Source: Streptomyces sp. NBC_00582
GTDB lineage: Bacteria; Actinomycetota; Actinomycetes; Streptomycetales; Streptomycetaceae
Reading direction: 5' to 3'
Assembly: GCF_036345155.1 (NCBI RefSeq)
Contig: NZ_CP107772.1
Span: 1,116,001 to 1,180,000 of the forward strand
DNA: 64,000 bases
This document shows, in pieces, positions 1 through 21,172 of this stretch. A program made the translations under genes and the position numbers. Each line of letters begins with the position of its first letter. Within the stretch, counting starts at the first letter, position 1. Below the pieces are notes generated by a model that saw only the letters and a program-made list of their open reading frames with translations, did not search any database and was not told the origin of the DNA.

Positions 1-418
1 GGTCGAGAGCGCTGTGGGGCAGCCCCAGGTCGAGCCGGTCCACGGCCCTCAGCTCCGCCTGCCGTCCGGAGTCCTCGTGCGCGCTCACGACCCACGCGCG
101 GAACTCCTCGACGGCGCATACCCGGTGCGGCCGGCCGTCGCGGTAGTGCACGGTCAGCGTCTCCCGTGCGGCCCGGTGCAGCCTGGTCACCTGGAACGTC
201 AGCTCCGACACCCCGGTCGGGACGCGTTCCTCCCGCAGCAGGGCGTTGACCAGCGTCGACTTGCCCGAGCTGACCCGGCCGACGAGGGCGACCCTCAGGC
301 GTGCCCCGAAGCCGTCCCGTATCTCCGCCAGCCGCTCCCGCGCCGCGGCGAGCTCCTGCGCCCCGCCCAACCGCCGTTCAGCGCGCCCGAAGGCCTCCCA
401 CACCCGCTCCCGCACCAT
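1..418 (-). CDS. Dynamin-like GTPase, N-terminal part (runs off the left edge)
   Basis: About 139 N-terminal residues are visible. They start with a basic, Ala/Glu-rich helical stretch and then show a classical P-loop, ALVGRVSSGKSTLVNALL (about residues 44-61), followed by a PTGVSELT stretch that can serve as switch I. GRVSSGKST-type loops are usual in bacterial dynamin-like proteins. The G3 and G4 motifs would lie beyond the window, so the class is inferred from the P-loop and from the neighbouring dynamin. The ATG at 418-416 overlaps the TGA of the upstream gene by one base (TGATG), so translation is probably coupled. Paired dynamin-like genes are known in Streptomyces (DynA/DynB) and elsewhere, where the partners can form hetero-oligomers on membranes; pairing here is inference. 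It is the last visible gene of the cluster. Confidence 0.75.
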   Translation of the reverse strand, partial: MVRERVWEAFGRAERRLGGAQELAAARERLAEIRDGFGARLRVALVGRVSSGKSTLVNALLREERVPTGVSELTFQVTRLHRAARETLTVHYRDGRPHRVCAVEEFRAWVVSAHEDSGRQAELRAVDRLDLGLPHSALD

Positions 419-2472
419 CACCCCACATCACCACCCGGCTCGGGAGACGGTGAGGGAGCCGGTGCCGGGGCGGGATCGTCTTTCGGCACATCCGGCCCAT
501 CCGGCCCATCCTCCCGATACAGCCCGGCCGCTGCCTCGGACAAGGTCGCCGCGCGGAGCCTGAGGTGGCTCAGTTCGTGCAGTTCCTCCTCGAGGGCGCG
601 GCGGCGGGTCAGGGCGTCGCGGGCTGTCGTCTCGCGGGCGTCGGCCAGCCGCCGTTGTTCGGCCTGGGCGGTCTGGCGGGCCTGGGCCACACGGCTGTCG
701 AGTTCGGTGACGACGGCGGTGCTCCACTCCGTGAGCACCGTGGTGATCTCCTGGTCGAGGTACTTCTGCTGTTCCTTGCGCAGGGGTGCCAGCGCCCGGC
801 GCAGTGCCTCGCGCCGGGCGGTGGTCTCCTCCTGTGTGATGATCCGCTCCGCGTTGCCGTACCCGGCCGCGGTCCCCACGGCGCCGCCGAGCGCGGAGCC
901 GATGAAGGCCCCCCACTGGCCGCCGAGCGTGCTTCCCAGCCCGGGGAAGATCAGTGTGCCCGCCAGCGCGCCGAGGGCGAATCCGCCGGCGGCGCCGGCC
1001 GAGCTGCCCACGCCGAACCCGGCACTGGAACTCATCAGTTTGCGGCGCTCGGCGTCACCCTTGCGCTCGGACCTGGCCATCGGGGGCAGCGCGGGAACGG
1101 GCGGGGTGGGCAGCCGGCCGATCGGGGCGGGTGTCAGCCGCAGGCCGTCGAAGGTGGAGAAGTCCCGCACCACGCGGGCCGCTTCCCGTGCCGCCAGCTC
1201 GTTCGCGGTGCCGAGGAGCTGGGCGATCTCCTCCGTGAGGTCGGACAGCAGGCGGTCCGGGTTGTCCAGGTAGGCGTCCTGGTAGAGGTGGTCGGCGTTG
1301 ACGAGCCCCCAGGCCTGGGCGAGGCCGTCGCTCGTCTCGCGCCGCAGCCGGGCGTGCATCGCGGTGAGGGCGTCCCGCAGTTCCGTACGCCACCGGGAGC
1401 CGTTGCCGTCGAGTTCGGCGAGGCGGCGCTGCTGGTCCTCGGCCTGCGCGGTGAGGCGGCCGAGCTCGTCCTCCTGCAGTGCGGCGAGGGCCGTCATCTC
1501 GGCCTGCACCGGCCGTGCCAGCGCGTGCGCGCAGGCGTCGACGGCGTCGAGGGCACCGCCCAGCAGCACCTGCGCCCGCCTGCGGAAGAGCGCCGACCAC
1601 AGTGCCTCCTCCAGTGCGGTGAAGTTGCTCAGCTCCAGGTCCTCGGGGTCGCCGGAGACCAGGTGGTCGAGCCGTGCGCGGCTGGAGACGGGCACCACGG
1701 TCAGCCGGTCGGCGGGCACCCCGGTGGTGGCGGCGAGTTTGTCTACGGTGTTGCGCAGCGCCTCCTCGTGGTCGGGCAGCGCGTCCGTCTTGTTGAGGAC
1801 GAAGACCTGCCCGCCGACGTCCCCGAGTGTCTGCGCCGCCTTCATGGCGCGGTCGAGGAAGGCGAGTTCGCTCTCGCTGAGGGGGCGCAGGACGTCGGTG
1901 ACGAAGACCAGCGCGTCGGCGGCGGGCAGGATCGCGGCCGTGGCCGCCGTGTGTTCCCGGTGGACGCCGCCGACCCCGGGTGTGTCGACCAGCGTGAGGC
2001 CGCCCGCCAGGCGGGCGTTGGGGGTGAACACCCGTACGGAGAGGACGCGTTCGTCCCCCGGCGGGCCGTCGTGCTCGGTGGTGTACCGGGCGAGGTCCTC
2101 GCGTTCGACCCGGCGTTCCTCGACGGTCCCGTCGAGATGCTCCAGGGTGACGTCGATGCGTTCCTCGGGCCCGTGGGAGACCGTCGTGACGGCGTTCGTC
2201 GTGTACGAGGCGCCGACCGGGAAGAGCTCCTCCGTCTCGCCCAGCAGGGCGTTGACGAGGGTGGACTTGCCCCGGTCGAACTCGCCGCAGACGAGGACGG
2301 TCAGCCGTCCCTCCGTCAGTCGCCCGTGGGCGGCCTCCAGCCGTGCGAGCGCCTCCTGCGCGCCCTGCCGCCGGGCGCGGTCGGTGAGTTCGGGGAACAG
2401 GTCGAGGATCTCTCGCCGGAGTTCCTCGTAGGTGTGTGCGCCGTGCGGCCGGGCCGCGTCGTGCTGGGTCAT
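418..2472 (-). CDS. Dynamin-like GTPase with glycine-zipper membrane segment
   Basis: 684 residues. A complete dynamin-type G domain is visible: G1 GEFDRGKST at 63-71, switch I around SYTTNAVTT (89-97), G3 DTPGVGG at 163-169 and G4 NKTD at 227-230. A long helical, Gln/Arg/Glu-rich middle (about 300-445) would form the stalk. Residues about 484-538 are a Gly/Ala-rich hydrophobic stretch (GFALGALAGTLIFPGLG...) of the glycine-zipper kind that inserts into membranes, followed by another helical region. Family knowledge: such proteins hydrolyse GTP to tubulate, fuse or repair bilayers. AGGAGGA lies 9 bases before the ATG, inside the 16-base gap after the Hsp70 gene. The stop overlaps the next GTPase gene by one base. 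Confidence 0.85.
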   Translation of the reverse strand: MTQHDAARPHGAHTYEELRREILDLFPELTDRARRQGAQEALARLEAAHGRLTEGRLTVLVCGEFDRGKSTLVNALLGETEELFPVGASYTTNAVTTVSHGPEERIDVTLEHLDGTVEERRVEREDLARYTTEHDGPPGDERVLSVRVFTPNARLAGGLTLVDTPGVGGVHREHTAATAAILPAADALVFVTDVLRPLSESELAFLDRAMKAAQTLGDVGGQVFVLNKTDALPDHEEALRNTVDKLAATTGVPADRLTVVPVSSRARLDHLVSGDPEDLELSNFTALEEALWSALFRRRAQVLLGGALDAVDACAHALARPVQAEMTALAALQEDELGRLTAQAEDQQRRLAELDGNGSRWRTELRDALTAMHARLRRETSDGLAQAWGLVNADHLYQDAYLDNPDRLLSDLTEEIAQLLGTANELAAREAARVVRDFSTFDGLRLTPAPIGRLPTPPVPALPPMARSERKGDAERRKLMSSSAGFGVGSSAGAAGGFALGALAGTLIFPGLGSTLGGQWGAFIGSALGGAVGTAAGYGNAERIITQEETTARREALRRALAPLRKEQQKYLDQEITTVLTEWSTAVVTELDSRVAQARQTAQAEQRRLADARETTARDALTRRRALEEELHELSHLRLRAATLSEAAAGLYREDGPDGPDVPKDDPAPAPAPSPSPEPGGDVG

Positions 2473-2488
2473 GGTCGTCGTCCTCCTG

Positions 2489-4510
2489 TCAGCGGATGAG
2501 GAGTTCCACTCGGTCCGCGACGTCGGAGAGCTGCTGGCCGATCGACGCGGTGATCTCCCGGGCGAGCCGCCCGTCCTCGGCCGACCGGAAGCCGGCCGAG
2601 AGCTGCCGGGCGAGCTGTTCCTCCTGCTGGGGGGCCTGGGCGCGCAGCTTGCGCACCATGGCGTCCTTCCCGCCCGATCGGCGCAGGGCGGCGGGAATGT
2701 CCTTGTCGCCGATCTTCTCGAAGACGAGGCCCTTGACCTTGTCGAGTCCCAGGAAGACGGCCGCGCCGGCGGCCAGGACGGCGACGGGTCCGGTGACCAT
2801 GACCAGCGCCATGCCGGAGCCGAACAGGACGGTGGCGACGATCCCGGACACCACGAAGTTGGCCAGGTTGCTGAGGTTGTTCAGGACGTCGGTGGTGGCG
2901 GACGTGTCGATGTCCACGGCCAACCGCCCGCCGTCGATGCTCACTTCGGGAAGCTCCAGCGCCGACGGCTCCAGGTTCCACCGGCGGCAGATCACCGCCG
3001 TGTGCTGGGCGAGCTCGGGGCGCAGCCCGGCCATCCAGTCCGTGATGATCTCCTTCAGCACGAGATTGCGGGTGCTGTCGAGTTCCGCGCGGACGCCGTC
3101 GGCGATGCGTTCGCGCATGGCGTCGAGGGTGACGATGTCGCGTCGCTGCCAGTCGAGGACCGCCGGGACGACGTGGTTCTCGGTGATGCCGGCGGCCACG
3201 GCCTCGGCGAGTTTCCCCGTGAGGTCCGGGAGCCGCTCCTCGACGAGGGTGCGGACGGTGCCGGTGGCGAGGAACTCCTCGACGTCGGCGCGGAATCCGC
3301 GGGCCCGGCTGTCCATCCGGCCGGCCAGGGCCAGCCCGCGCGCGATGGCGAACTCCGGCTCGGTGCCGAGGATCACCTGCGCCTCCGGTGCCAGCTCCCG
3401 GGCGATCTCCCGGACGAAGCGCATACGGGACGGTCCGCCGGTGAGCACGATGCTCTCCACCTTCCCCCCGACGTGTTCCAGGGCCGTGGCGAGGTCCTGG
3501 CGGCAGGCGTCCCGCCAGGAGCGGCCGTCCAGTGCCGGGAGCGGCTCGGTGAGGACCCCGGCCATGTCGTCCTGGTCGATCGTGAGGGTGAGGGCGAGGA
3601 TGTCGTCGTCGCGGGTGAAGATCTCCTCCGTGGTGCGCACCCGCATCCTGGGGTTGCCGCGCAGGCGTTCCGGGCTGTACGCGAAGAACTTCTCCTTCAG
3701 CTTGCGCGCGGCGATCTCCAGCGTCTGGGCGGCGGCGGGGTTGTCGCGCAGCTCCGCGCGCAGCCGGGGTGCGTCGGGCGACCGTTCCACGGCCAGCGCG
3801 AGCAGGCCCTTGTCGATCAGGTGGGCGCCGAGGACGACGTTGCCGTGGTCGACCGGGCTTCCGGTGCCGTCGACCACCGAGGTGTAGTCCGTGGTCGACG
3901 ACCCGATGTCGACGATGAGGGTCGAGGCGGCGAGGTCGGTGCCGCTGCGGGGTGCGGAGTCCGGGATGTCGCCGGCGTCCCGGGCGTAGAGCAGCGCGGC
4001 CCGCGACTCGGGGACGAGGGCGACCTCGTCGGGTGCGCACACGTCCGCGAAGAGGTCCCGGTAGGCCGTGACCTGGTCCGGGGTCCAGCCCGAGGGATGG
4101 CCGAAGACCCAGCGGACCGGGCCGTCGCCGACGTGCGTCGCGCGTACGTCCGCCACGACGCGGCGTGCGAACAGCTCCAGCGGGGTGCGGACGTCCGCCT
4201 CGTCCAGGTCGGGGGACTTGAAGGCGACGTACTTCCTGGGTCCCTCGTGGGCGACGGCGTCCTCTCCGACCAGGACGGCGTCGTCGGGGGTCACCGCCAC
4301 CGCGGTGACGAGCTGCCTGCGGTCGCCTCCCAGCTCGATGACCTCGGGCGGGGCGTTGCGGTCGCCGAGCGCGGCGGCACCCGTGTGCAGGCCGATGTGG
4401 ACCTTGGTCAGCGCCGTGTCCCCGTGGCCCAGGTCGAAGCCGATGACGGCGGTGCCGGAGCCGTCGTCGGCCGCTGCCGGGAGTGCGGGGGTGGTGGGCT
4501 CGGTGTTCAT
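2489..4510 (-). CDS. Membrane-anchored Hsp70/actin-fold ATPase
   Basis: 673 residues from the ATG at 4510, chosen because AGGAG sits 8 bases upstream; the frame is open further but without a better site. ASKHA motifs are clear: phosphate-1 VIGFDLGHGDTALTK at about 22-36, phosphate-2 LIVDIGSSTTDY at 198-209, and adenosine motif VLTGGPSRMRFV at 354-365. After the ATPase domain there is no typical DnaK substrate-binding beta-sandwich. A helical region follows, then a hydrophobic segment at about 549-587 able to cross the membrane once or twice, then a basic cytoplasmic tail. It is therefore probably a membrane-tethered relative of Hsp70. It lies between the GrpE-like gene (118-base gap) and two dynamin genes, suggesting that it acts at a membrane together with them. 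Substrate unknown. Confidence 0.8.
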   Translation of the reverse strand: MNTEPTTPALPAAADDGSGTAVIGFDLGHGDTALTKVHIGLHTGAAALGDRNAPPEVIELGGDRRQLVTAVAVTPDDAVLVGEDAVAHEGPRKYVAFKSPDLDEADVRTPLELFARRVVADVRATHVGDGPVRWVFGHPSGWTPDQVTAYRDLFADVCAPDEVALVPESRAALLYARDAGDIPDSAPRSGTDLAASTLIVDIGSSTTDYTSVVDGTGSPVDHGNVVLGAHLIDKGLLALAVERSPDAPRLRAELRDNPAAAQTLEIAARKLKEKFFAYSPERLRGNPRMRVRTTEEIFTRDDDILALTLTIDQDDMAGVLTEPLPALDGRSWRDACRQDLATALEHVGGKVESIVLTGGPSRMRFVREIARELAPEAQVILGTEPEFAIARGLALAGRMDSRARGFRADVEEFLATGTVRTLVEERLPDLTGKLAEAVAAGITENHVVPAVLDWQRRDIVTLDAMRERIADGVRAELDSTRNLVLKEIITDWMAGLRPELAQHTAVICRRWNLEPSALELPEVSIDGGRLAVDIDTSATTDVLNNLSNLANFVVSGIVATVLFGSGMALVMVTGPVAVLAAGAAVFLGLDKVKGLVFEKIGDKDIPAALRRSGGKDAMVRKLRAQAPQQEEQLARQLSAGFRSAEDGRLAREITASIGQQLSDVADRVELLIR

Positions 4511-4628
4511 CCGGATCTCCTGGTGACGTCCCCTGGTGGATTGCCCCGGGGTGTGGCGGTGGGTGTCGGGGCGCCCGTCGTGGGGGCCGGGCGGGTGTGC
4601 GTGAGGTGCGGGCGGGTGTGATGGGGGG

Positions 4629-5449
4629 TCAGTCGGTGTTCCCGTCGGGGGGCGGGGCTCCGCCGTCGGCGGTGGCGGGGCGCGGTGCGGCCGGCGGCCG
4701 GACACGGCCGCGCCGCAGGGTCCTGCCGTCGGCGGTGACGTCGACCAGTGCGGGTACGAGCGTCATGGCGGGGGCGCCGGGCCGGGCGCCCTCGGTGAAG
4801 TCGAAGCGGAGCGGGTCACCGCCGAGGCCGGTGTCGGCGGGGTCGTAGCGGACCGTCCGGATGCCGTGTGCCGAAAGGGTCTCGGTCAGGTCCCCGATCC
4901 GGGCCAGCGCGAAGGACTCCCGCCCGCGTACGCCCGCGGCCAGCAGGTCGTGCAGCATGTCGAGGAGGTCGTCGTCCGCGCTCCACGGCCGTGGCTCGGC
5001 GGGCCGCGCCGCCTCGGCGGCTGCCCTGCGGTCGGCCTCCTCCAGCGCGGCGCGGAGGCCGTCGAGCACCTTGGCGACCGTCACCAGGACCGGACCGGGA
5101 GCGGGGTCCGGGCCGGTGCGCTCCGCGTCCTGGGCCGGATGACTCCGGCCCACCCTCGCCCGTATCCGGGCCATGCGGCCGGGGTGTCCCTCGGCGGTGT
5201 CGCCCGTCGGGTCGTCCTGCGTGCCGTCGGTCCGCGCCGGGGACGCGCGCACGGCGTACAGGGTCAGGGCGATCGCCGACTTGACGGCGTCGGCGTAGCC
5301 CGCGGCCGACGGGCCGGTCCCGTCGGCGGGGGCCCGGGGAGTCAGCCGGGCGAGGGCGTCGGCGAGTTCGACGGCCGGAACAGCCTCGTCCAGGGACTTC
5401 CGGAGCGTGTCCAGCGGATCGCGGTACAGGTCGAGCAGGCTGATGGGGC

Positions 5450-5453
<4 letters not shown>
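4629..5453 (-). CDS. GrpE-like nucleotide exchange factor
   Basis: 274 residues from a GTG start with GGGAGGA 6 bases upstream; the GTG overlaps the Hsp70-WD40 stop as GTGA. Residues about 120-180 are helical. The stretch from about 188 to 255 follows the order of the GrpE head domain: a LxxLxxxGI-like ETLSAHGIRTVRYDP, an acidic/aromatic DPLRFDF where GrpE has its FDPxxHEAV segment, and TLVPALVDVTADGRTLRRGRVRPPA matching the GrpE GY..GRxLRPAxVxV end. The N-terminal 110 residues are specific to this protein. GrpE releases ADP from Hsp70; a dedicated copy between two Hsp70-type genes suggests it serves them. The assignment rests on motif order and context and is moderate because the sequence is divergent. 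Confidence 0.6.
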
Positions 5454-7929
<2,476 letters not shown>

Positions 7930-7933
<4 letters not shown>

Positions 7934-10673: not shown

Positions 10674-10676
10674 CGC

Positions 10677-12218: not shown

Positions 12219-15200
12219 CAGTGCCTCCCGCTGTTGGGGTCCCAGTGGTGGTTGAACCGCGTGGTGGGCCGGTCCATGCGCTCGCGCAGCACCCGCCCGG
12301 GGAAGTCCTCCACCTGACGCAGGGACCCGGCGGGCAGGTAGGGAACGACGCCGCGGTGCACCCGGAGCCGGCCGCGGACGTCGAGGGTGGCGTGGTGCTG
12401 ACCGTCCTGGACGGCCGGGAGGTACCCGAGGTGGACGGGGGCGCCGTCGTCCCGGTCGAGGAAGAACTCGTAGGTGAAGGTGCCGTTGGCCTCTTCGGGG
12501 GGCACGGTGATGGGTGCGCTGCGTCCCGGCTGGGGCAGCTCGTGCAGGTCGAGCGACTCGTGGAAGGACTCCGGCAGATAGCCGGCCGGTGACACCGCCG
12601 CCTCTCCGTCCAGGGCCGGCGTGGGCGGGAACACCTCGACGAGCCGTCGTGCACCGCTGTCGTCGTCCGTGCCGGCCCTCACACAGATCCGGCCGGGCAC
12701 GGAGCAGCTCGGCAGGTCCGGGTCGAAGGCGAGGCCCGGGGCGGCGCCGTCGAGTTCGAGGGCCCGTCCTTCGACGAGCAGCCGGGCCGGGCCGTTGCAC
12801 AGCAGGATGTGCGGGACGAGCCGGTTGTCCAGTTCGAGCTGGTAGCGCACCCCGCGCTCGCTGCCGCTGGGCGGGCGCCAGACGGAGGCGGTGGGGGTGA
12901 AGCCCTCCGCGCTCGCGGCGAGGGCCAGGTCGAACACGCCCCATTGCAGGGAGTCCCCGGGTCCGATGTAGCGGTGGATGCCCAGGACGCGGCTGAGCGG
13001 GTTCCAGCCGGTGCGCACGCCGAGCCGCCCCGAGCTGTCCAGTTCGACGTAGGGGTCGCCGGCCCGCAGCAGCGGGGTGACGCGCTCCATGTGACCGCGC
13101 GGGCCGAAGTCGGCCGGGAGGCTGGAGAAGAGGCCCTGGAGCCGGATGTCGAGGTCGCTCAGCCGGACGGTGGCCTCGGTCCGTCCGCCCTTGGTGTGGT
13201 GGTGGTCGATCTGTCCGGAGAGGTTGCGCACGGCGTGCGCCCAGGCCGCGCCGAGCGAGGTCGCCTGCTTGGCGTAGGCGGTCTCCGCCGACAGTTGGGT
13301 GGCCTCGTACCAGCCGGGTGCGTCCTCGCCGTCGCCGTCGCCCTCGTCCTGTCGCAGCGCCGCCTCGACCTGCTCGGCGAGCAGCGCCATCCGGCTGGTG
13401 CGGCCGGACAGCACCACCTGGTCGAGCCGTGGCTCGGGCAGTTCGGGCAGTCCCTGCTCGCGCCGTCGCGCGTTCTCCTCCCGGATGCGCCGGAAGGAGC
13501 TGCGGACCAGGTCCGCGCCGAGTGCCGCGGCCCGCCGCAGCACGGGCTGGACGAGTTTGGTGAACTGCGCGGCGTCCAGGGTGATCGGCTCGCGGACCTC
13601 GCTGAGCCGGTGCGGGGCCGCGTTGAGGATGTTGGCGATTTTGTCGGGCTGGAGAACGGCCTGGGCCGCGTCGGCCGCGCCGAGTTCACGCTTCTTCTGT
13701 TCCGCGAGCCGCCACAGCATGTCGAAGCGGTTCTTGCGCTTGCCGCGCTCGACCGGGTCCTCCACTCCGGCCCAGTCGGTCGGCAACGCCTCCGCGAGGA
13801 CCCTGCCCACCTCGGCGGAGACCAGGGTGTCGAGTTGGTCGGCGGCCTGTTCGACCACCGTCTCGGCGTAGCCGCGCCGGGGCCTGTCGTCGGTGTCCGG
13901 GTCCGGTGCGGGGCCCTCCTCGTCCGTGTCGGCGCCGGTCGTGTCCGGTCCGGGCCGGCGCGCGGGGGGCCTCAGTTCGTCCACCAGCCTGGCCTTGATC
14001 CAGTAGAAGACCTGGAGGGTCAGCAGGTCGCCGCCGAGCCGTTCGTGGCCGGTGGAGCCGAGGAGTTCGGGTTCCAGGCGGTAGGCGCGGCCGGCGACGA
14101 ATTCCTGGGCGGAGGGGAGTTCGGGGGTCTGGTCGACCAGGGTCAGCCGGAGCAGGGCGATGTCGGTGGTGCCGCCGCCGATGTCGATCACCAGCATGAC
14201 GCGTTGCCAGGTGGGCGGGTCGTCCCCGACGCGACGGCAGCGCGAACGCAGCGCCTCCAGGCCGGCGTTGAGGTTGTCGGTCAGGTCCCGCATGAGGAAG
14301 AACAGTCCGGCCGCCAGTCCCTCGTCGTAGTCCATGACGACGCGGGGGCCGCCCAGGGCCGCGCGGACGAGCTTGCCGAGCTTCTCCTTGACCTCGGGCA
14401 GGACGGTGGTCGGGTACGTCACGACGACGGTGGCCATGCGGCTGATGGTGTCGGGCACCGGGTCGTACGTGATCTGTTCGGCGCCGTCGACCAGCAGCAG
14501 GTACATGTGCTGGGCCAGATGATCGGCCGACAGGTCCGACCCCACCACGGGTTCCGGGGTCAGCCGCAGGGCCGCCCGCTTGATGCCGGTCAGGTTCCCG
14601 TACAGGGCGAAACGGCGGGCGGCGGGGTGGGGCGGCGGGTCACCGTCGGGGTACTCCGTCTCCCGCAGGGTGCTGGCGGGGGCCGTGGTGAGCTGGCCGG
14701 AGTCGTCCTGGTAGTGGACGGGATGCAGTCCGTGGCGGTGCAGGGGCGGGGTCCCGATGACGGAGGCGTAGGCGCGGTACAGGCGGTGGTTCAGCCAGTG
14801 TTTGACCTCGGGTGCGGCCTGTTCCCGCAGAGCCTCCACGCGCAGCAGGAGTGCGTCCGCGACGTCGACGTCGTCCAGCCTGGCCAGTGCGTCGGCGCCC
14901 TGGATCTCCGTGCCCCGGCGGGGCAGCGGGAGCTTCGCGGCGAGCAGGGCCTCCACGTCCTTGCGCCACTCGGCGGGCGCCTCCGGGGGCGGTGCCAGCA
15001 GATCGGCGAGGTGGGCCGCGAGGGAGCCGGACTGCGCCTCGTCGACCAGCCGGGCCTTGATCCGCGTCGGGTCGTGCAGGGTCGCCGTGGACGCGGTGGT
15101 GCCGAAGTCCACGACGACGAACTCGTGTTCGTGGGTGGTGCTGGTGACATCGCGCAGGACGAGGAAGTCGTCGTCGTCCTCCACCGGCGGGGGCGGGCCG

Positions 15201-15682
15201 GGTTCCTCACCCGGGGGTGCGAACTCCAGCAGGACGCGGCCCCGTGCGGTGCCCGCGTGCTGGTCGGACGAGAAGTCCACGCTCCACAGCACCTCCAGCC
15301 GCAGCCGTTCCTCGTCCGGTGCGGGCGGTGCGCCGGCGGGGTGGACGAGGGCGGTCGGCAGGGGCGTGTCGGCGGACAGCTTGCGCGGCCCGTCCACGCT
15401 GAGGGAGGTGTACTCCTGCGGTACCCAGCAGTCCACCAGGGCCTGGGCGAGGTGGGCCGGCACCAGTCCGCCGCTGGGGGTGATGACCTCGATACGGGCG
15501 GGCAGGTGGACGGTGACCAGGCGGCTGCCGCCGTTCTGCTCCTCCGGCCGGAGGAAGACGTCGGGCAGGAGGATGCCGTCCGGGCCGGTGTGCAACCGGA
15601 ACTGCCGGCGGCCGAGCGGGACGACACCGGAGGCCGGGCCACTGTGCGGGAGGTCGAAGGCTACGGTCAGTTCGTCACTCAT
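12218..15682 (-). CDS. Giant Hsp70/actin-fold ATPase, SrfB-like architecture
   Basis: 1,154 residues. A beta-rich N-terminal domain (1-180) precedes a split ASKHA ATPase: phosphate-1 FVVVDFGTTASTATL at 188-202, then a long insertion, phosphate-2 MLVIDIGGGTTDIALL at 496-511 and adenosine-type motif QVVLSGRTSRMALL at 755-768. A further beta-rich C-terminal domain runs from about 850 to the end. The large insertion between the two phosphate motifs and the size of about 1,000 residues recall the enterobacterial SrfB family, whose gene is followed by SrfC; here the gene just upstream encodes a large GTPase. That comparison is from memory of the families and needs a profile search. The start is one base after the GTPase stop, and the stop overlaps the acidic-protein gene as TGATG. 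Confidence 0.75.
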   Translation of the reverse strand: MSDELTVAFDLPHSGPASGVVPLGRRQFRLHTGPDGILLPDVFLRPEEQNGGSRLVTVHLPARIEVITPSGGLVPAHLAQALVDCWVPQEYTSLSVDGPRKLSADTPLPTALVHPAGAPPAPDEERLRLEVLWSVDFSSDQHAGTARGRVLLEFAPPGEEPGPPPPVEDDDDFLVLRDVTSTTHEHEFVVVDFGTTASTATLHDPTRIKARLVDEAQSGSLAAHLADLLAPPPEAPAEWRKDVEALLAAKLPLPRRGTEIQGADALARLDDVDVADALLLRVEALREQAAPEVKHWLNHRLYRAYASVIGTPPLHRHGLHPVHYQDDSGQLTTAPASTLRETEYPDGDPPPHPAARRFALYGNLTGIKRAALRLTPEPVVGSDLSADHLAQHMYLLLVDGAEQITYDPVPDTISRMATVVVTYPTTVLPEVKEKLGKLVRAALGGPRVVMDYDEGLAAGLFFLMRDLTDNLNAGLEALRSRCRRVGDDPPTWQRVMLVIDIGGGTTDIALLRLTLVDQTPELPSAQEFVAGRAYRLEPELLGSTGHERLGGDLLTLQVFYWIKARLVDELRPPARRPGPDTTGADTDEEGPAPDPDTDDRPRRGYAETVVEQAADQLDTLVSAEVGRVLAEALPTDWAGVEDPVERGKRKNRFDMLWRLAEQKKRELGAADAAQAVLQPDKIANILNAAPHRLSEVREPITLDAAQFTKLVQPVLRRAAALGADLVRSSFRRIREENARRREQGLPELPEPRLDQVVLSGRTSRMALLAEQVEAALRQDEGDGDGEDAPGWYEATQLSAETAYAKQATSLGAAWAHAVRNLSGQIDHHHTKGGRTEATVRLSDLDIRLQGLFSSLPADFGPRGHMERVTPLLRAGDPYVELDSSGRLGVRTGWNPLSRVLGIHRYIGPGDSLQWGVFDLALAASAEGFTPTASVWRPPSGSERGVRYQLELDNRLVPHILLCNGPARLLVEGRALELDGAAPGLAFDPDLPSCSVPGRICVRAGTDDDSGARRLVEVFPPTPALDGEAAVSPAGYLPESFHESLDLHELPQPGRSAPITVPPEEANGTFTYEFFLDRDDGAPVHLGYLPAVQDGQHHATLDVRGRLRVHRGVVPYLPAGSLRQVEDFPGRVLRERMDRPTTRFNHHWDPNSGRH

Positions 15683-15683
15683 G

Positions 15684-18332
15684 TCACTCGGCGCTCCAGT
15701 CTCGGATCAGGGTGTCGAGCGGGTCCTCGTGCGGACCCTCGTCCGTCGCGGGGAGGTCACCCGCCGGGCCGGTGCCGGTGGCGCGCGGTCCCCGGGGCGG
15801 GCGGATCTCGCTCTCCAGGGGCAGGAAGGCGGTGGCCTGCGCGTAGAGCCCGAGCAGGTCCTTCTCGATCCGGCCGAGTGCCTGCCCGAGGTGCTCGGTG
15901 ACGAGCCGGGCAGCGGCGTCGGCCGTGTGCTGCCGCAACTGCACGACGAGCAGCGGGTGGCGCTCGCGCTCCTCGGAACGCTGGTCGTCGAGCCTGGGCA
16001 TGCGGTGGTGCCAGGGCAGGGCGTGCGGGGCCCGCATCGGGAACCGGTTCTCCTGCTCCTGCGGCGTGGGCCCGGGCACGATCATGAGTTCCTCGAGCTG
16101 CGGCCGTACCGCGTCCGGGTTGAGCGCGGTCCACAGGTGCTGCAGTTGCCGGGCGGCCAGGCCCTCACCGCCGCGGAGCCGGACGAAGAGGTCGTGCAGC
16201 AGTTTGTAGGACTCCGGGTCGGCCATCCATTCGCGCAGCGGCCCGAACTCGTCCTGCCAGTGCGCCGCCCAGCCCTCCAGCCAGACCCTCAGCTGTTCCT
16301 GGCCTTCGGCCGCGCGCCGGTCCACGAGGCCGCGGAACCGCTCCAGGAAGGCGGTCGTCGCGTCCGCCGAGTCCTCGGGGGCCGCGGATTCCTGCGCCGC
16401 CGTGGCGGCCTGGCCCGGCGGGAGCAGCAGGGTGATGCCCGTGCTGGAGGGCGGCCTGCTGCGCGGCACCAGATGGTGACCGTCGCGTTCGGCCCGGCCC
16501 AGCAGTTCCTGCCACTCGCGCCAGTCGAAGACGTCGTCGCGCACCGACGCGGCGATCTCCTCGCGCTGCGGCGGGCGTCCGCCGAGGTCCGCGGCCGCTT
16601 CGCCGTCGTCCGGGCCGTCCCGGTGGCTCACGGTGGACCTGAGCTGGTACAGCATGGGCAGGATCCGGCCCAGCAGTTCGCGGAACTCCCCTATTCTGGC
16701 GGCAAGTTCACGGTACTCCTCCGGTGTCTGGGTGCCCCTGGCCCGGCGGAGCCGGGAGCGCAGCACGCCCAGCTCACGCCAGAGTCTGCGGTGGGAGCCG
16801 AGCGCGCGCTCCAGCTTCTGGTCGAGGCCGTGCTCCTGGACGTGGTTCTCGACGAGACGGCGCAGCCGTTCGACGCCGCCGTCGCTGTCGTAGGCGCGCA
16901 GCCGGTCCGTCCACGGGTTGGCCTCGTCGGCCTGGCGCAGCCGTCCCGCGACGGCCTCCCAGCGTTTGGCCCCCGGTGCGTCGAGGTCCTCCAGCGCCTT
17001 GCGGATGCGTGCCCTGGTCTCGTCGGACGTCCGGGTGTACGGCAGTTGGTAGGCGCGGATCGCGGAGATGGAGGAGACGACGACGATCCCGTTCTCGCGG
17101 TGCTGGACGAACTTGTTGCCGTAGACGTGGATGCCGTTGATCTCGGCGGAGTGGGCGAGCAGGTGGCGCAAGGGCAGTGGTCCGTCCGGTACGGCGCTCA
17201 GGGCGGGCGGCCCGACCCGGTCGAAGGCGTTCGCCGCGACGAGGGCGGCGCTGGCGAGGGCCTGGGGTGTGCGGCCGTCGGCGGTGAGCATGTCCCAGAA
17301 GGCGGAGGCGCCCTTGGATTCGGGGCGCACCGCGTTGATGACGAGCAGGATGGTGTGGACGGACACCATCTCGCGCCGGCTGAGGAAGGTGTCGCGGCCG
17401 GCGGAGCCCGCGGCGTTGATGCCGGGGAAGTCCATCAACCGCACGGGGGTGTCGTCCGAGATCAGTCCGGCCAGGTCCCAGTGGTCGGGGGAGACCGTCA
17501 CCTTCAGGGTCACCTTCTCCACGAGGGGGAAGGCCCGGCGCATGGCCTCCTTGGCGGTGTCCGGCACGGGGTGCCTGAGCTGGGCCGTGTCGAAGGGCCG
17601 CACCTGGCGCTTGGGCGGGTGCTCCGGGGTGCGCTGGGCGGCCTCCAGCCGGAGCGCCTCGTCCATCACGGCCGTGGCGACGCCGACCGGGATGCCGAGG
17701 AGGTCGCGCTGACTGAGGGCCGCGTCACGGATCCGGCAGAGTTCGGTGACCGTGTCCCGGTGGACCGCGCCGATGGCCTGGTGGGTGCCGGATTCACCCG
17801 AGGCCGGCCACAGGCGCGGGTACCACGTCTCGAAGGGCGCCCATCCGCGGGGGTCGGTCACCGGGTTGTATCCGCCGAGCGCGATGCCGGCGCCGAGGTG
17901 CGGGTGCCGTTCGTCCAGGGCGCGGACGAGTTCCTCCAGCATGGCGCCCACGCACTCGGCGAGTCTGGGCTCGGTGAGGAAGGTGACCTCGGCGATGTCC
18001 GCCTTCTCGGTCGGCTTGCCCGGCTCGCCCCGGGTCAGTTCGAGGACGGTGATGTTCCCGGTGCTGGGGCCGGCCTCGACGGGCAGCAGGTCGGGCTTGC
18101 CGAGCAGGGTGCCCAGGAGCAGGGACTTGCCGACCGAGTACTCGCCGACGACACCGATGGTGACGGGGGCGGCGAGCCGGGACTCCAGTTCGGAGGCGAG
18201 CGCCTGGGCCCGGTCGCGCGACGCGTGCGCCTCGGGGACGTCCGGCATGTCCAGCCCGCTCAGCACGGTCAGGGTCCGGCCGGCGAACTCGCGCAGATCG
18301 GCCAGGGTCGGTTGCTTCTTGAAGGCGGTCAC
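15684..18332 (-). CDS. Large dynamin-type GTPase, SrfC-like
   Basis: 882 residues from a GTG with GGAGC about 6 bases upstream. G1 is TIGVVGEYSVGKSLLLGTLL (58-77), switch I is STGNITV (90-96), and G3 is VRLMDFPGINAAG (297-309) after an insertion of about 200 residues. The G4 position reads AANAFDRVG (366-374), where the Lys of NKxD is replaced (NAFD). Long helical regions (about 430-550 and 640-800) would form a stalk. The large insertion between switch I and switch II sets it apart from the two dynamins at the other end of the cluster. Together with the next gene (1,154-residue Hsp70-fold protein, 1-base gap) it forms a GTPase/ASKHA pair reminiscent of SrfC/SrfB. No transmembrane segment was seen, so membrane contact may need partners. 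Confidence 0.75.
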   Translation of the reverse strand: MTAFKKQPTLADLREFAGRTLTVLSGLDMPDVPEAHASRDRAQALASELESRLAAPVTIGVVGEYSVGKSLLLGTLLGKPDLLPVEAGPSTGNITVLELTRGEPGKPTEKADIAEVTFLTEPRLAECVGAMLEELVRALDERHPHLGAGIALGGYNPVTDPRGWAPFETWYPRLWPASGESGTHQAIGAVHRDTVTELCRIRDAALSQRDLLGIPVGVATAVMDEALRLEAAQRTPEHPPKRQVRPFDTAQLRHPVPDTAKEAMRRAFPLVEKVTLKVTVSPDHWDLAGLISDDTPVRLMDFPGINAAGSAGRDTFLSRREMVSVHTILLVINAVRPESKGASAFWDMLTADGRTPQALASAALVAANAFDRVGPPALSAVPDGPLPLRHLLAHSAEINGIHVYGNKFVQHRENGIVVVSSISAIRAYQLPYTRTSDETRARIRKALEDLDAPGAKRWEAVAGRLRQADEANPWTDRLRAYDSDGGVERLRRLVENHVQEHGLDQKLERALGSHRRLWRELGVLRSRLRRARGTQTPEEYRELAARIGEFRELLGRILPMLYQLRSTVSHRDGPDDGEAAADLGGRPPQREEIAASVRDDVFDWREWQELLGRAERDGHHLVPRSRPPSSTGITLLLPPGQAATAAQESAAPEDSADATTAFLERFRGLVDRRAAEGQEQLRVWLEGWAAHWQDEFGPLREWMADPESYKLLHDLFVRLRGGEGLAARQLQHLWTALNPDAVRPQLEELMIVPGPTPQEQENRFPMRAPHALPWHHRMPRLDDQRSEERERHPLLVVQLRQHTADAAARLVTEHLGQALGRIEKDLLGLYAQATAFLPLESEIRPPRGPRATGTGPAGDLPATDEGPHEDPLDTLIRDWSAE

Positions 18333-18399
18333 AGTGCTCCACGCTCCGTTTGGCTGTGGTGGGTGCGGCGGGTCGGCGGGGCGGGTGGGTTCCGGCCGG

Positions 18400-18972
18400 T
18401 CACCGCTGGAGGAAGAACAGTTCGATCCGCGCCGTCCCCGAGGCGATGCGGAAGCTGCTGTCGTGGTAGCCGCGGATGATCTTCTCGTCGTAGGGCGGGA
18501 AGAATTCCGGGGCGATCCTGGGCAGCAGCCGGGCGACGGCGGTGGCGTAGACGTCGCTGCGGGCGGTGTCGACGCCGCCTCCGGAGGTGTGGACGGTGGC
18601 GAAGACCATGACGAACGCGGCGGTCCGTCCTCGGTACGGCCCGATCCGGCGGTCGACCTGACGCCGGACCGAGGCGACGGCGCCCGCGGTTCCCGCGATG
18701 ACCGCTTCGGCGTCGGCGCGGACGGTGATCGAACGGGTGACGGGATCCAGTCCGGCGGGCCGTGAGGCGCGGGGGGCCGGGGGCGAGGCGGTCGGTCGGG
18801 GGGTGCGGCCGGTTGCCGCGGAGGCGGTCGTGCTCGGTGTCGGCCCCGCGTCGTCGGACTGTTCCGTCGTGCCGGGCTGGCTGCCGAGCACCACCAGCAC
18901 CAGGACGAGCAGCAGGTCGGCGAAGAGCCATCCCGCGAGATACGGCGTCGGGGTCCGCCCGGACCGCCTCAT
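18400..18972 (-). CDS. MotB/ZorB/TolR-like single-pass protein with OmpA-like C-terminus
   Basis: 190 residues. One membrane helix spans about 12-30, YLAGWLFADLLLVLVLVVLG, with Asp19 near its cytoplasmic end. This reproduces the YADxxxxxxxFFLVxWL pattern of MotB, where the Asp is the ion-binding residue of the stator; TolR, ExbD and ZorB carry the same feature. A Pro/Ser/Thr-rich linker (32-75) leads to an extracytoplasmic domain (about 78-190) ending IRGYHDSSFRIASGTARIEL, similar in order to the OmpA-type peptidoglycan-binding fold (G-x-G...N-R-R-V/I-E), though the usual GHTD is replaced. The ATG overlaps the stop of the coiled-coil membrane protein as ATGA, as expected for motA/motB- or zorA/zorB-type pairs. 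Function as an ion-driven unit is inference. Confidence 0.65.
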   Translation of the reverse strand: MRRSGRTPTPYLAGWLFADLLLVLVLVVLGSQPGTTEQSDDAGPTPSTTASAATGRTPRPTASPPAPRASRPAGLDPVTRSITVRADAEAVIAGTAGAVASVRRQVDRRIGPYRGRTAAFVMVFATVHTSGGGVDTARSDVYATAVARLLPRIAPEFFPPYDEKIIRGYHDSSFRIASGTARIELFFLQR

Positions 18973-21044
18973 CGGGGGGTCTCCCGATTCCCGGTGCCGA
19001 CGCCCTGTTCCGCTCCGGCCGGCCGGGACCCGCCGCCGTCCCCGTGCGGGCGCGCTTCCGCGCCGGCGGGCACCGCAGGCGTCCCGGCCGCGAGGGCGGC
19101 ACGCTCGGCCGGCTCCCCGGTCGTGTGCCCGTCGGAGCGGTTGCCGTCCGCCCGCCGCACGGCATCCCCCGCCCGTCCGCCACGGCTGCCGTCCGGCTGA
19201 CGTAGGGCGTCCCCCGCCCGTCCGCCATGGCTGTCTTCCGCCTGCCCTACGGCATCCCCCGCCCCTCCACCACGGTTGGCGTCCCCCTGCCCTACGGCAT
19301 CCCCCGCACGTCCACCCCGGCTGCCGTCCGCCTGCCCTACGGCATCCCCCGCCCCTCCGCCACGGTTGCCGTCCGCCTGCCCTACGGCATCCCCCGCACC
19401 TCCGCCACGGCTGCCATCCGCCTGCCCTACCCTGCTGTCCCCCTGCCCTACGGCATCCCCCGCCCGTTCGTCGAAGACGTCGTCCGTGGGGGCGGGTGCC
19501 GTCCGGGGTGACGGCGTGGGCCGGGAGGGCCGGTGGGCCGGGGGGCCGGCCGACCGGCCGGGGGCGCCGGGGTCCGCGGCCAAGACCGCCTCGCGGAGGC
19601 TCACCGTGACCCGGCGCAGCGTCTCCTCGAACTCGGCCAGGGTGGCGCGCAGTCGTTCCTCCGCCAGGTCGTGTCCCCGGTGTGTCTTCTCCCGCTCGCT
19701 CTCCCGGGCGGCCACCGCCACCTGCAACTGGGTGATGCGGTCGGCGAGTTCGTCGGAGACCTGACGGACCTCGCGGCGCAGGGAGGACGCCAGGGCGGTG
19801 ACGGCCATGTCGTACGCCGTGCCGATGCGGTCGGCGCCGTCGGCGGCCGACGTCTCCAGCGCCGAGGGCAGTGCGGCCATGGTCCCGTCCAGTCCGCGCA
19901 CCGTCGAGGTCAGGGTCCGGGACGACTCGGTCAGGGAGGCCGAGGTCCGGTCGATCGAGGCCCTCGCGTCGGCGCCGACGCGTTCGAGCAGGGCCGCCGC
20001 CTGTTCGGCGACCGTCGTCTCGCGTGCCTCCGCCGCGCGGGCGGCGGCGTCGAACCGGGCGGCGACGGAGTCCCCCGCGGCGCCGATCCGGTCGGCGGCG
20101 GCACGGCCCGCCTCGGCGACCGCGTCATGCAGAAGGGTCACCGAGCCGGACAGACCGCTGCTGATGCCGTCGGCTCCCCTGGCCACCGCCTCCGCGGCCG
20201 TCGCCGCTCCCTGCACGGCGACGCGTACCTCGGAGGCGCCGGAGCGCACGGCGGCGAGCGCGGACTCCATGGCGGTCAGCGCCTGCGCGGCCCGGCTCAC
20301 CGCGCCGTCGGCCTGGGTGACCACGGCGCGGGCTCCGGCCTCCAGGCCGACGGCCTGCGCGACGAGGCCGTGCAACTGCGTGGCCGCGCCCTGGAGTTCC
20401 TCGGTGAAACGACGGGGCGACGCGACCGCGGCACGGGCGGCGAGCGCCTCCGTCTGGGCGAGGGCCCCGGACAGCCGCCGGGAGAGAACGAGCCGTTCCT
20501 GCTCGTCCCGTTGTTCCCAGCGCTGCCGCAGCAGGGTGGTGGTGGCGAGGGCGGCCAGGGAGAGCACCGTCCACAGGGCCATCATGTCGAAGCGCAGAAA
20601 GGGCCACAGGTGCCCGTCGAACCCCTGCTGCCAGAGCGTCAGAAAGGTGCCCTCGGTGTCGCTGTCCTGATCCCTCATCCTCCGGTTCGCCCAGGTGGCG
20701 GCGCCCAGTCCCACCCAGGTGATGAGCAGGGGCACGAAGACGAGGGCCGCCGCGAGCGGCCCCAGCCGTCGTCCGCCGCCGCCCGCGTCGACGAGCGCGT
20801 CGGGCCCGCCGTAGGCGGCGACCAGGCTGCCCCCGGCCCACACCTCGAGGTCCCTGTCCCGGCGTACGGCGTCGGCCAGTTCCCGTAGGGCGCCGCTGTG
20901 CGGGGCGAGTCTCGGGTGCTCCGCGAGTTCCGTGAGTTCGTCCGCCAGCGCGGCGCGCCGGCGGTATGTGGGCCGTACCGGCTCCGTACGTGCCGCCGCG
21001 GTACGCCGCCGCGGCCGGAACGGATTCCCCCCGCCAAGTTTCAC
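18969..21044 (-). CDS. Two-pass membrane protein with long coiled-coil tail (MotA/ZorA-like architecture)
   Basis: 691 residues from a GTG with GGGGAGG 7 bases upstream. After a basic N-terminus there are two membrane helices, about 95-119 (LGPLAAALVFVPLLITWVGL...) and 152-173, separated by a short loop with FLTLWQQGFDG. Residues about 178-490 are an almost unbroken Ala/Glu/Arg coiled coil, and 505-665 are low-complexity, containing seven copies of a 15-residue repeat (consensus GAGDAVGQADGSRGG). Two or more helices followed by a long cytoplasmic coiled coil, translated just before a MotB-like partner, is the layout of ZorA and other MotA/ExbB relatives; sequence identity is not evident by eye. 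It is the first gene of the twelve-gene cluster, 128 bases after the Crp/Fnr gene. Confidence 0.6.
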   Translation of the reverse strand: MKLGGGNPFRPRRRTAAARTEPVRPTYRRRAALADELTELAEHPRLAPHSGALRELADAVRRDRDLEVWAGGSLVAAYGGPDALVDAGGGGRRLGPLAAALVFVPLLITWVGLGAATWANRRMRDQDSDTEGTFLTLWQQGFDGHLWPFLRFDMMALWTVLSLAALATTTLLRQRWEQRDEQERLVLSRRLSGALAQTEALAARAAVASPRRFTEELQGAATQLHGLVAQAVGLEAGARAVVTQADGAVSRAAQALTAMESALAAVRSGASEVRVAVQGAATAAEAVARGADGISSGLSGSVTLLHDAVAEAGRAAADRIGAAGDSVAARFDAAARAAEARETTVAEQAAALLERVGADARASIDRTSASLTESSRTLTSTVRGLDGTMAALPSALETSAADGADRIGTAYDMAVTALASSLRREVRQVSDELADRITQLQVAVAARESEREKTHRGHDLAEERLRATLAEFEETLRRVTVSLREAVLAADPGAPGRSAGPPAHRPSRPTPSPRTAPAPTDDVFDERAGDAVGQGDSRVGQADGSRGGGAGDAVGQADGNRGGGAGDAVGQADGSRGGRAGDAVGQGDANRGGGAGDAVGQAEDSHGGRAGDALRQPDGSRGGRAGDAVRRADGNRSDGHTTGEPAERAALAAGTPAVPAGAEARPHGDGGGSRPAGAEQGVGTGNRETPR
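19130..19470 (-). repeat. Minisatellite of 45-bp units in the membrane-protein tail
   Basis: About seven imperfect 45-base units (with one shorter, partly deleted unit near the right end) encode GAGDAVGQADGSRGG-like peptides. Each plus-strand unit contains CTGCCCTACGGCATCCCCCG. Units differ by point changes, and all keep the frame. This is a likely site of length variation between strains and of assembly error. Confidence 0.9.
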
Positions 21045-21094: not shown

Positions 21095-21172
21095 CGGGGC
21101 GGCCGGATCCGGTCAGGTGACGCTTTCGCGGCAATCCGCCGGAGCAACTCCCCGCCGTGGCAGACGGTTTGG

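What the first reader, a model, noticed from the sequence alone, without database searches (positions are those of the whole stretch)
1..21044. Twelve-gene cluster joining Hsp70s, GrpE, dynamins and a motor-like pair
Twelve same-strand genes with overlaps or tiny gaps combine three Hsp70-fold ATPases, a GrpE-like protein, three dynamin-type GTPases (two at one end, one at the other), a degenerate PP2C, two uncharacterised proteins and a MotA/MotB-like pair. I know of no described system with this composition. Hypothesis: a membrane-associated machine in which Hsp70-type ATPases and dynamins assemble on, or remodel, the membrane at a site powered or sensed by the motor pair, perhaps for envelope-stress repair or phage defence.
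Basis: partly seen in the sequence, partly recalled or inferred. Interest (0 to 1): 0.95.

Follow-up and report, generated by a model that had tools for sequence, protein, structure and literature searches.

The report
Hsp70–dynamin immune locus with nucleotide switch
A soil bacterium carries one long run of genes that joins two protein machines predicted to be driven by ATP and GTP and is bracketed by a gene predicted to make, and a gene predicted to sense, a small nucleotide signal; it is likely a switchable immune system that would act at the cell membrane, and it would give the old 'virulence factor' SrfB a testable job.

Summary
The twelve genes are real (minus strand; gaps or overlaps of -4 to 118 bases), but they are not one conserved twelve-gene unit. 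They are two modules. Module A (g1-g7) is built on a dynamin-SrfB-g5 core: g4 is an SrfB-like Hsp70-fold protein, and g3 is a dynamin-family GTPase with SrfC-like motif spacing. Module B (g8-g12) is Hsp70-WD40, GrpE-like, Hsp70-like and a dynamin pair. Relatives keep A or B alone, or side by side in other arrangements; here they meet at a 4-base overlap. The run is really 14 genes: a Crp-family regulator precedes g1, and a class III cyclase-like gene follows g12, just outside the window. Beyond that lies a convergent PycTM gene. The cyclase-like and Crp genes were found together in 18 loci, beside dynamins, SrfB modules or CHAT genes; other loci lack both. One promoter-type element stands before module A, before module B (relatives) and before a DO-GTPase gene; it was absent from 800 kb of control sequence of this genome. 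MotA/MotB homology was not found. Best reading: a nucleotide-switched, membrane-acting conflict (probably anti-phage) locus, a new variant near Pycsar and DO-GTPase/Hsp70 systems. Function is inferred; nothing was tested on the bench.

The parts
22249..23076 (+). DO-GTPase2-like gene (alternative start 22270), divergent from the run
   Evidence: Pfam DO-GTPase2 E 1.6e-8; same-family genes follow the module-B Hsp70 in relatives G066 and G063
22196..22236 (+). promoter-type element TCATCTGACC-N24-ACCATGG, beginning 74 b before the called DO-GTPase start (22270)
   Evidence: 0 such elements in 800,000 control bases of the same genome
21173..22030 (-). Crp-family regulator (cNMP-binding domain plus Crp-type HTH), first gene of the run
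   Evidence: Pfam cNMP_binding E 1.8e-18, HTH_Crp_2 E 7.3e-14; 128 b before g1
21080..21120 (-). promoter-type element TCACCTGACC-N24-ACAGTGG, beginning 76 b before g1
   Evidence: same spacing before g1 and before the module-B Hsp70 in relative G066
   Evidence: no Pfam MotA match; 0.2% hhalign to MotA
   Evidence: TM; 0.1% hhalign to MotB
15684..18332 (-). g3: dynamin-family GTPase, SrfC-like (P-loop at 63, DFPG at 301)
   Evidence: Dynamin_N E 4.2e-8; SrfC-like G1-G3 spacing
12218..15682 (-). g4: SrfB-like Hsp70-fold protein with about 184 extra N-terminal residues
10677..12218 (-). g5: core partner of g3/g4, unknown fold, long low-confidence acidic stretch
   Evidence: family downstream of g4 in 13 of 15 loci; model pLDDT 69, no PDB match better than E 0.77
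9249..10673 (-). g6: uncharacterised accessory protein
   Evidence: 14 proteins found; no PDB sequence match at E 1 and no Pfam match over its cut-off
7930..9252 (-). g7: degenerate PP2C with one predicted N-terminal TM helix (likely pseudo-phosphatase)
   Evidence: PP2C_2 E 2e-7; metal-binding motif not seen in 5 of 5; TM
5450..7933 (-). g8: Hsp70 ATPase domain fused to C-terminal WD40 repeats, first gene of module B; 4-b overlap with g7
   Evidence: HSP70 E 1.7e-33, WD40 E 7e-13
4629..5453 (-). g9: GrpE-like (position and C-terminal pattern; sub-threshold)
   Evidence: aligns to the GrpE C-terminal domain at 187-254 but only 1.3%; Pfam GrpE in module B of two relatives
2489..4510 (-). g10: Hsp70-like protein with two predicted hydrophobic helices near the C-terminus
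   Evidence: HSP70 E 0.063; near full-length homologue in G271
418..2472 (-). g11: dynamin-like GTPase of the pair
   Evidence: Dynamin_N E 4.7e-22; PADLOC LeoA E 6.5e-29
1..421 (-). g12: second dynamin of the pair, 514 aa, cut by the window edge (whole gene L003:16877-18421, to window -1123). Beyond the edge follow, outside the window: the class III cyclase-like gene L003:15996-16865 (-, window -2004 to -1135), the convergent PycTM gene L003:15379-15969 (+, window -2621 to -2031) and a Ser/Thr kinase gene L003:13695-15305 (+)
   Evidence: g12 Dynamin_N E 9.5e-9 on the window piece; cyclase-like: both catalytic-type Asp kept in 20 of 20 aligned, PDB sequence hit E 0.3, 11 b after g12; PycTM Pfam E 1.6e-12, PADLOC E 4.9e-14; kinase E 6.6e-37

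Best explanation
The window holds most of a 14-gene same-strand run that begins with a Crp-family regulator gene and ends, just outside the window, with a gene predicted to encode a class III nucleotidyl cyclase, and it is likely a nucleotide-switched conflict (immune) locus in which two predicted NTP-driven machines would act on the membrane of infected cells. Shown: gene order, the two modules, the shared promoter-type element, the cyclase-like/Crp pair in other loci and the PycTM neighbour. Inferred: an infection or envelope signal activates the cyclase-like protein; its product binds the Crp-family protein, which raises transcription of the run from the element before g1 (and of the DO-GTPase gene from its twin), and also opens the PycTM membrane effector. 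Module A (g3 SrfC-like dynamin, g4 SrfB-like Hsp70-fold protein, g5, with g1/g2/g7 as membrane anchors) and module B (dynamin pair g11/g12 with Hsp70s g8/g10 and the GrpE-like g9) would then assemble on the membrane. There the Hsp70-type ATPases load and recycle the dynamin coats, which deform, seal or rupture membrane and so contain the invader or the infected hyphal compartment.
For: Two modules, repeatedly neighbours: g3 directly before g4 in 14 of 15 SrfB-type loci (the 15th contig starts inside g4), a g5-family gene downstream in 13 of 15; dynamin pair plus Hsp70 in the same neighbourhood in 5 of 15 (OWN, G066, G272, G304, G399); module B without A at 7 further loci. In 295 genomes g4 occurs in 9 (one a weak partial hit, G083) and g12-type dynamin in 22, both in 5 (Fisher p 1.5e-4); in 4 of the 5 they lie within 17 kb. 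Switch: cyclase-like and Crp genes together in 18 loci; cyclase-like without Crp only on two contigs under 10 kb; Crp of this family without it in none of the loci held. Of the 16 closest cyclase-like genes in 295 genomes, 11 lie within about 12 kb of dynamin genes and 4 of the other 5 beside CHAT genes. PycTM here Pfam E 1.6e-12; weaker PycTM-like genes beside the cyclase-like gene in G399, G091 and G125. Element: 5 in 953,844 b of related loci, all intergenic, beginning 72-100 b before g1 (2), module-B Hsp70 (2), DO-GTPase (1); 0 in 800,000 b control. g4 is an Hsp70 fold. Caspase/CHAT neighbours in relatives; GAP1 plus DO-GTPase2 in the same locus as the switch pair in G115.
Against: 8 of 15 SrfB-type loci show neither cyclase-like nor Crp gene in the stretch held (G211, G253, G125, G001, G304, G363, G568, G632; three of these are contigs under 28 kb), one more has only the cyclase-like gene (short contig), and 3 of 7 B-only loci lack both. 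Nine of the 20 cyclase-like loci were fetched because of that gene. The cyclase assignment rests on motifs and a PDB sequence hit of E 0.3; no Pfam, NCBIfam or PADLOC family supported it. The broad family occurs in 173 of 295 genomes, so only its closest subfamily is informative. The element was found after looking at shared 9-mers; shuffles gave 1.05 on average (max 3), and the five sites are about two orthologous groups; TCACCTGACC with one mismatch is not enriched by itself. No shared Crp-type palindrome was found. No phage, activity or expression data. The fused 12-gene order was seen only in this genome.
Confidence: 0.5

Rival explanations
1. Chance-assembled defence island: modules A and B, the switch pair and PycTM are separate systems that are merely stacked in one accessory region of the chromosome and work independently.
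For: A and B occur apart in most loci, order and orientation vary; the g10-bearing module B is found without A (G271); patchy distribution, g4 in 9 of 295.
Against: A and B overlap by 4 b at g7/g8 here; the same element with the same 24-b spacing precedes both modules; neighbours in 5 of 15 loci in several different arrangements; the switch pair accompanies A alone, B alone and A plus B.
Confidence: 0.25
2. Envelope-stress or developmental machine: Hsp70-dynamin assemblies reseal or remodel membrane in hyphae (septation, damage repair) under cAMP-type control, with no role in immunity.
For: Predicted membrane anchors in g1, g2, g7, g10; dynamins and Hsp70s have such roles elsewhere (established knowledge); Crp-type control of other processes in Streptomyces (titles and abstract starts, and recalled).
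Against: Rare and patchy within the genus (9 and 22 of 295), unlike developmental genes; PycTM, CHAT/caspase and DO-GTPase neighbours point to conflict.
Confidence: 0.17
3. An SrfABC-type secreted or injected toxin locus aimed at other cells.
For: g4 is SrfB-like and g3 SrfC-like; SrfABC of Xenorhabdus was reported as a cytotoxin (PMC6950479, abstract and search passages seen).
Against: No SrfA relative found (g5 and g6 against SrfA below 4%); no secretion gene named among the proteins scanned; intracellular ATPase/GTPase folds; no Crp or cyclase gene named in the four annotated proteobacterial srf stretches.
Confidence: 0.05

Closest known systems
GAP1-N2 / DO-GTPase conflict systems (Kaur, Burroughs and colleagues, eLife 2020; PMC7159879, abstract and search passages seen)
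   Same: Actinobacterial, often membrane-associated; one theme pairs HSP70 with GrpE and, in a subset, a second HSP70 without its peptide-binding domain; another has a PP2C. DO-GTPase2 genes lie beside this locus and in G066 and G063; GAP1 plus DO-GTPase2 sit in the same locus as the cyclase-like/Crp pair in G115.
   Different: No GAP1 found here; 'dynamin' and 'MotA' occur 0 times in that paper's held text; SrfB/SrfC, dynamin pairs and a Crp/cyclase-like bracket were not among the passages seen.
Pycsar (nucleotide cyclase plus PycTM/PycTIR effector; recalled)
   Same: Cyclase-like gene with both metal-binding-type Asp next to a PycTM gene.
   Different: No PADLOC model matched the cyclase-like gene; a Crp-family regulator and two NTPase modules are added.
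SrfABC (proteobacterial 'virulence factor' operon)
   Same: SrfB-like Hsp70-fold protein next to an SrfC-like GTPase with about 210-285 residues between P-loop and D[F/L]PG.
   Different: Order is C-B-then g5, g5 is not SrfA, and the annotated stretches in Rahnella, Lelliottia, Ewingella and Mesorhizobium name no Crp or cyclase gene (the Erwinia, Pseudescherichia and Hyphomicrobiales stretches were not annotated).
Bacterial dynamin pairs (LeoA/LeoBC type; Streptomyces DynAB recalled)
   Same: g11 matches PADLOC LeoA E 6.5e-29; tandem pair.
   Different: g12 type occurs in 22 of 295 genomes, so it is unlikely to be the general developmental pair; an Hsp70 of the g8 family is present in 12 of 12 two-dynamin loci examined, but in 0 of 4 three-dynamin loci.
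Zorya / MotAB motors
   Same: g2 has a single predicted TM helix with an invariant Asp; g1 has predicted TM helices and a long tail.
   Different: No MotA/MotB homology found; the ZorA model hit only the tail, E 0.024, and no ZorB-E model matched.

Membership tests
Pycsar | class III nucleotidyl cyclase with two metal-binding aspartates | tested here: inconclusive
   Asp in [V/A]D[I/V/L] and GD[G/S] kept in 20 of 20 aligned; only PDB sequence hit a cyclase at E 0.3; no Pfam or PADLOC match at E 0.1
Pycsar | adjacent PycTM or TIR effector | tested here: met
   PycTM Pfam 48.2 bits against cut-off 27.2, 26 b from the cyclase-like gene, convergent
Pycsar | phage-triggered cyclic pyrimidine synthesis | not testable with these tools
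   no biochemistry
SrfABC | SrfB (PF07520) | tested here: inconclusive
   20.1 bits against cut-off 27.1; profile-profile 97% over 348 columns; 4 of 41 homologues carry the Pfam label
SrfABC | SrfC (PF10139) | tested here: inconclusive
   no Virul_Fac match for g3 at E 1; hhalign 30%, collinear only at low stringency, global mode 0.1%; late DFPG in 12 of 14 g3 relatives (DLPG in a 13th) and DFPG/DLPG in 3 of 6 SrfC
SrfABC | SrfA | tested here: not met
   g5 and g6 against SrfA 0.2% and 3.6%
DO-GTPase / GAP1-N2 system | DO-GTPase | tested here: met
   22249-23076 DO-GTPase2 34.9 bits against cut-off 27
DO-GTPase / GAP1-N2 system | GAP1 protein | tested here: not met
   no GAP1 domain among the proteins of this locus scanned; found in relative G115
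MotAB / Zorya motor | MotA/ZorA and MotB/ZorB homology | tested here: not met
   no usable actinobacterial ZorA comparator
Zorya | ZorC/ZorD or ZorE | tested here: not met
   no such PADLOC match at E 1 for g1-g8, g10, g11 (g9 and g12 not scanned there)
Hsp70 | Hsp70 nucleotide-binding fold | tested here: met
GrpE | PF01025 in g9 | tested here: inconclusive
   no match for g9 at E 1; matches within module B of G272 and G286
active PP2C phosphatase | metal-binding aspartates | tested here: not met
   DGxGG not seen in 5 of 5 homologues (motif recalled)

The most novel reading that the evidence does not exclude
SrfB and SrfC are an ancient Hsp70-dynamin immune engine: an Hsp70-fold ATPase that loads or strips a dynamin coat. 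In actinobacteria this engine has been wired, together with a second Hsp70/GrpE-like/dynamin-pair engine, to a private nucleotide switch (cyclase-like protein plus Crp-family receptor) that both transcribes the machines and opens a PycTM pore. That would be a new class of immune system in which membrane-remodelling chaperone-dynamin machines are the effectors.
Probability: 0.3. Interest if true: 0.92.

Novelty: new variant of a known kind. Interest (0 to 1): 0.78.

Why it matters
SrfB and SrfC carry the label 'virulence factor' without, as far as I recall, an agreed mechanism. Here the same pair reads as an Hsp70-fold protein plus a dynamin-family GTPase inside a locus marked by immune-type neighbours, which makes the question testable in harmless Streptomyces. 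If confirmed, it adds a nucleotide-switched class in which chaperone-dynamin machines, not nucleases or pores alone, would carry out defence, and it links Pycsar-type signalling to the DO-GTPase/Hsp70 conflict network of multicellular bacteria.

Tried and rejected
Motor hypothesis: Pfam, PADLOC, hhalign to E. coli MotA/MotB and PDB sequence profiles gave nothing beyond coiled-coil or chance matches; 40 of 384 class genomes matched the ZorA model, and every match listed began at or after model position 277 of 590, so it gave no usable comparator.

SrfA identity of g5 or g6: rejected. Fold of g5: model pLDDT 69, no PDB match better than E 0.77. g6: no PDB sequence match at E 1. g10: no PDB sequence match at E 0.1. 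g3 against SrfC in global mode: 0.1%. In some searches I gave hhalign a template option (-tM) that it ignored, as its warning says.

Plasmid carriage of g4: no match.

Consensus promoters/terminators in 4000-22600: 0 and 1 found against 0.1 and 2.1 expected, uninformative. Palindromes before crp genes: no shared Crp-type site. TCACCTGACC alone with one mismatch is not enriched in the window (5 against 5.55 expected); only the long form with the spaced tail is.

Rows dropped: G083 (g4 hit over 157 residues, E 2.4e-5) was not fetched and is not among the 15 loci; G105 (one dynamin at a contig edge) is not among the 7 B-only loci; G266 (4.5-kb contig) stays in the 16. The other g10-like places that I fetched (G147, G231, G264, G263, G276, G007, second G271 place) showed no other gene of modules A or B by blastp; G281 was not fetched.

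Literature: ten full-text searches; judged from titles and abstract starts of the rows listed (lists capped; one search had 703 papers and listed 12, one search had 470 and listed 12), none described this combination; the holdings lack most subscription journals and preprints. SrfB with 'conflict systems' 0 papers; three of SrfB, SrfC, Hsp70, dynamin 0 papers; Zorya with MotB and dynamin 0 papers.


Full report
What is there. The window lies on a contig of 10.79 Mb in an 11.1-Mb genome, by its homologues a Streptomyces. Codon-position GC and ORF limits give twelve minus-strand genes, g1 (21044-18969) to g12, which runs past the window edge to -1123. Neighbours overlap or are at most 118 b apart. 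The run is longer than the finding: upstream of g1, 128 b away on the same strand, is a Crp-family regulator with a cNMP-binding domain (E 1.8e-18) and a Crp-type helix-turn-helix. A 289-aa gene of an unnamed family (below) follows 11 b after g12, and convergent to it is a PycTM gene (Pfam 48.2 bits, cut-off 27.2), then a Ser/Thr kinase. Divergent from crp is a DO-GTPase2 gene.

Two modules, not twelve genes. g4 occurs in 9 of 295 sampled genus genomes, one of them a weak partial hit that I dropped (G083), and a relative in 8 of 345 class genomes including this one. Around the fifteen resulting loci (own included), g3 sits directly before g4 in 14 (the remaining contig begins inside g4) and a g5-family gene lies downstream in 13. 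g1-g2 occur in 3 of 15, g7 in 5 of 15, g6 by HMM in 2 of 15; a DUF4407 membrane protein stands before g3 in 6 of 15 instead. The dynamin pair plus Hsp70 (module B) lies in the same neighbourhood in 5 of 15: downstream and overlapping here; divergent upstream in G066 and G304; downstream on the opposite strand in G272; and in G399 downstream on the same strand but in the internal order g12-g11-g8, with the Crp, PycTM-like and cyclase-like genes between. Module B occurs without A at seven loci examined (G271, G103, G109, G286, G063, G016, and a second place in G304). g10-like genes were found in 9 of 295 genomes, of which only this one also has g4. In 295 genomes, g12-type dynamin is in 22 and both g4 and g12 in 5 (Fisher p 1.5e-4), in four of them within 17 kb (genomes are not phylogenetically independent). 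In this genome A and B are fused: g7 and g8 overlap by 4 b.

The switch pair. The gene after g12 belongs to a family present in 7 of 15 SrfB-type loci. Its alignment keeps an Asp in a [V/A]D[I/V/L] motif and a GD[G/S] motif in 20 of 20 members, the layout of class III cyclases (recalled). The only PDB sequence hit is a cyclase, E 0.3, aligned at those motifs. No library names it, so 'cyclase-like' is a prediction. The wide family is in 173 of 295 genomes, but there is a break after 16 close members (E 7.6e-58, then 2.0e-48). Of these 16, 11 lie within about 12 kb of dynamin genes, 4 beside CHAT genes, and 1 is on a 4.5-kb contig; a Crp-family gene accompanies 15 of the 16. Over all loci held, cyclase-like and Crp genes occur together in 18, the cyclase-like gene without Crp on two short contigs (G601, G266), and Crp of this family without it in none. 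Nine loci were fetched because they hold the cyclase-like gene, so only the Crp partner is an independent observation there. Against this, 8 of 15 SrfB-type loci and 3 of 7 B-only loci hold neither gene in the stretch read. PycTM-like genes sit beside the cyclase-like gene here, in G399 (PADLOC E 6.4e-4) and, by a two-sequence HMM only, in G091 and G125 (Pfam did not name the latter two). Relatives add caspase (Pfam, G272, G275, G115), CHAT, or GAP1 plus DO-GTPase2 (G115).

A shared promoter-type element. TCA[C/T]CTGACC-N24-AC[A/C/G][A/G]TGG occurs five times in 953,844 b of related loci, each time intergenic and beginning 72-100 b before a called start codon: g1 here and in G066, module-B Hsp70 in G066 and G063, the DO-GTPase gene here (threshold 8 of 10 in the first part plus AC..TGG). 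Block-shuffled sequence gives 1.05 on average in 20 shuffles (maximum 3); 12.9% of these loci is intergenic by my gene calls; forty 20-kb stretches of the same genome (800,000 b) contain none at the same threshold. The motif was noticed post hoc from shared 9-mers, and the five sites amount to about two orthologous groups, so it is suggestive, not proof. It would tie module A, module B and the DO-GTPase gene to one control.

SrfC. Of 14 g3 relatives, 12 show the P-loop pattern at residues 56-77 and 12 show DFPG at 269-336 (a 13th has DLPG); of six SrfC proteins, five show the P-loop pattern and three of these also DFPG/DLPG at 340-355. This long G1-G3 spacing, not seen in g11 (63 and 163) or g12 (48 and 146), together with the SrfB neighbour, makes g3 SrfC-like although the profile score alone is weak (30%; 0.1% in global mode). 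The proteobacterial order A-B-C is reversed here and the third gene is not detectably related to SrfA.

How it probably works. Shown: anatomy, modules, co-occurring genes, shared element. Inferred from family knowledge: the cyclase-like protein answers infection; the Crp-family protein reads the nucleotide and switches on the run and the DO-GTPase gene; PycTM opens the membrane; the dynamins, loaded or recycled by Hsp70-type ATPases and a GrpE-like exchanger, remodel it. Confidence is 0.5 for this reading, 0.25 for independent stacked systems, 0.17 for a repair or developmental machine, 0.05 for a secreted toxin.

Place among known systems. The nearest described network is the DO-GTPase/GAP1-N2 family of Kaur et al. 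2020 (PMC7159879; abstract and search passages seen), which has an HSP70/GrpE theme and a PP2C theme; the held text has no mention of dynamin or MotA, and a search found no paper holding both SrfB and 'conflict systems'. Pycsar supplies the cyclase/PycTM logic (recalled); SrfABC supplies the A core (PMC6950479, abstract and search passages seen). No single family's defining set is met in full, so I file it as a new variant within this network.

Noticed in passing
window 53797-58424 (+): RNA ligase/AAA_33 protein overlapping by 1 b a 961-aa protein with MJ1316 RNA cyclic-end recognition, endonuclease/exonuclease/phosphatase, 2'-5' RNA ligase and poly(A)-polymerase central domains: a likely RNA-repair pair after a PAS-GAF-SpoIIE-HATPase protein (51289-53754).
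   Followed up: no
window 41531-43225 and 60903-62558 (-): Two cytochrome oxidase subunit I (COX1) genes about 18 kb apart.
   Followed up: no
window 19120-19465 (-): The C-terminal tail of g1 holds seven AGDA[V/L] motifs, six of them at 15-residue spacing; the region is missing in its G066 homologue.
   Followed up: partly
window 25225-26190 (+): SIR2-family protein (Pfam E 5.1e-41) about 2 kb beyond the DO-GTPase gene; SIR2 domains also occur in defence proteins (recalled).
   Followed up: no
L003:13695-15305 (+), window about -4305 to -2695: Ser/Thr kinase (Pkinase E 6.6e-37) next to PycTM; possible partner of the degenerate PP2C g7.
   Followed up: partly
L073, L074, L075, L076: A three-dynamin version of the locus (three dynamins, cyclase-like gene, Crp; two of four with a PycTM-like gene) without Hsp70-family hits in the held stretch.
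   Followed up: partly
L016:9120-14824, L079, L080: Caspase plus CHAT gene pairs beside the Crp/cyclase-like pair, in G115 in the same locus as GAP1 and DO-GTPase2: the switch pair may serve several conflict systems.
   Followed up: partly
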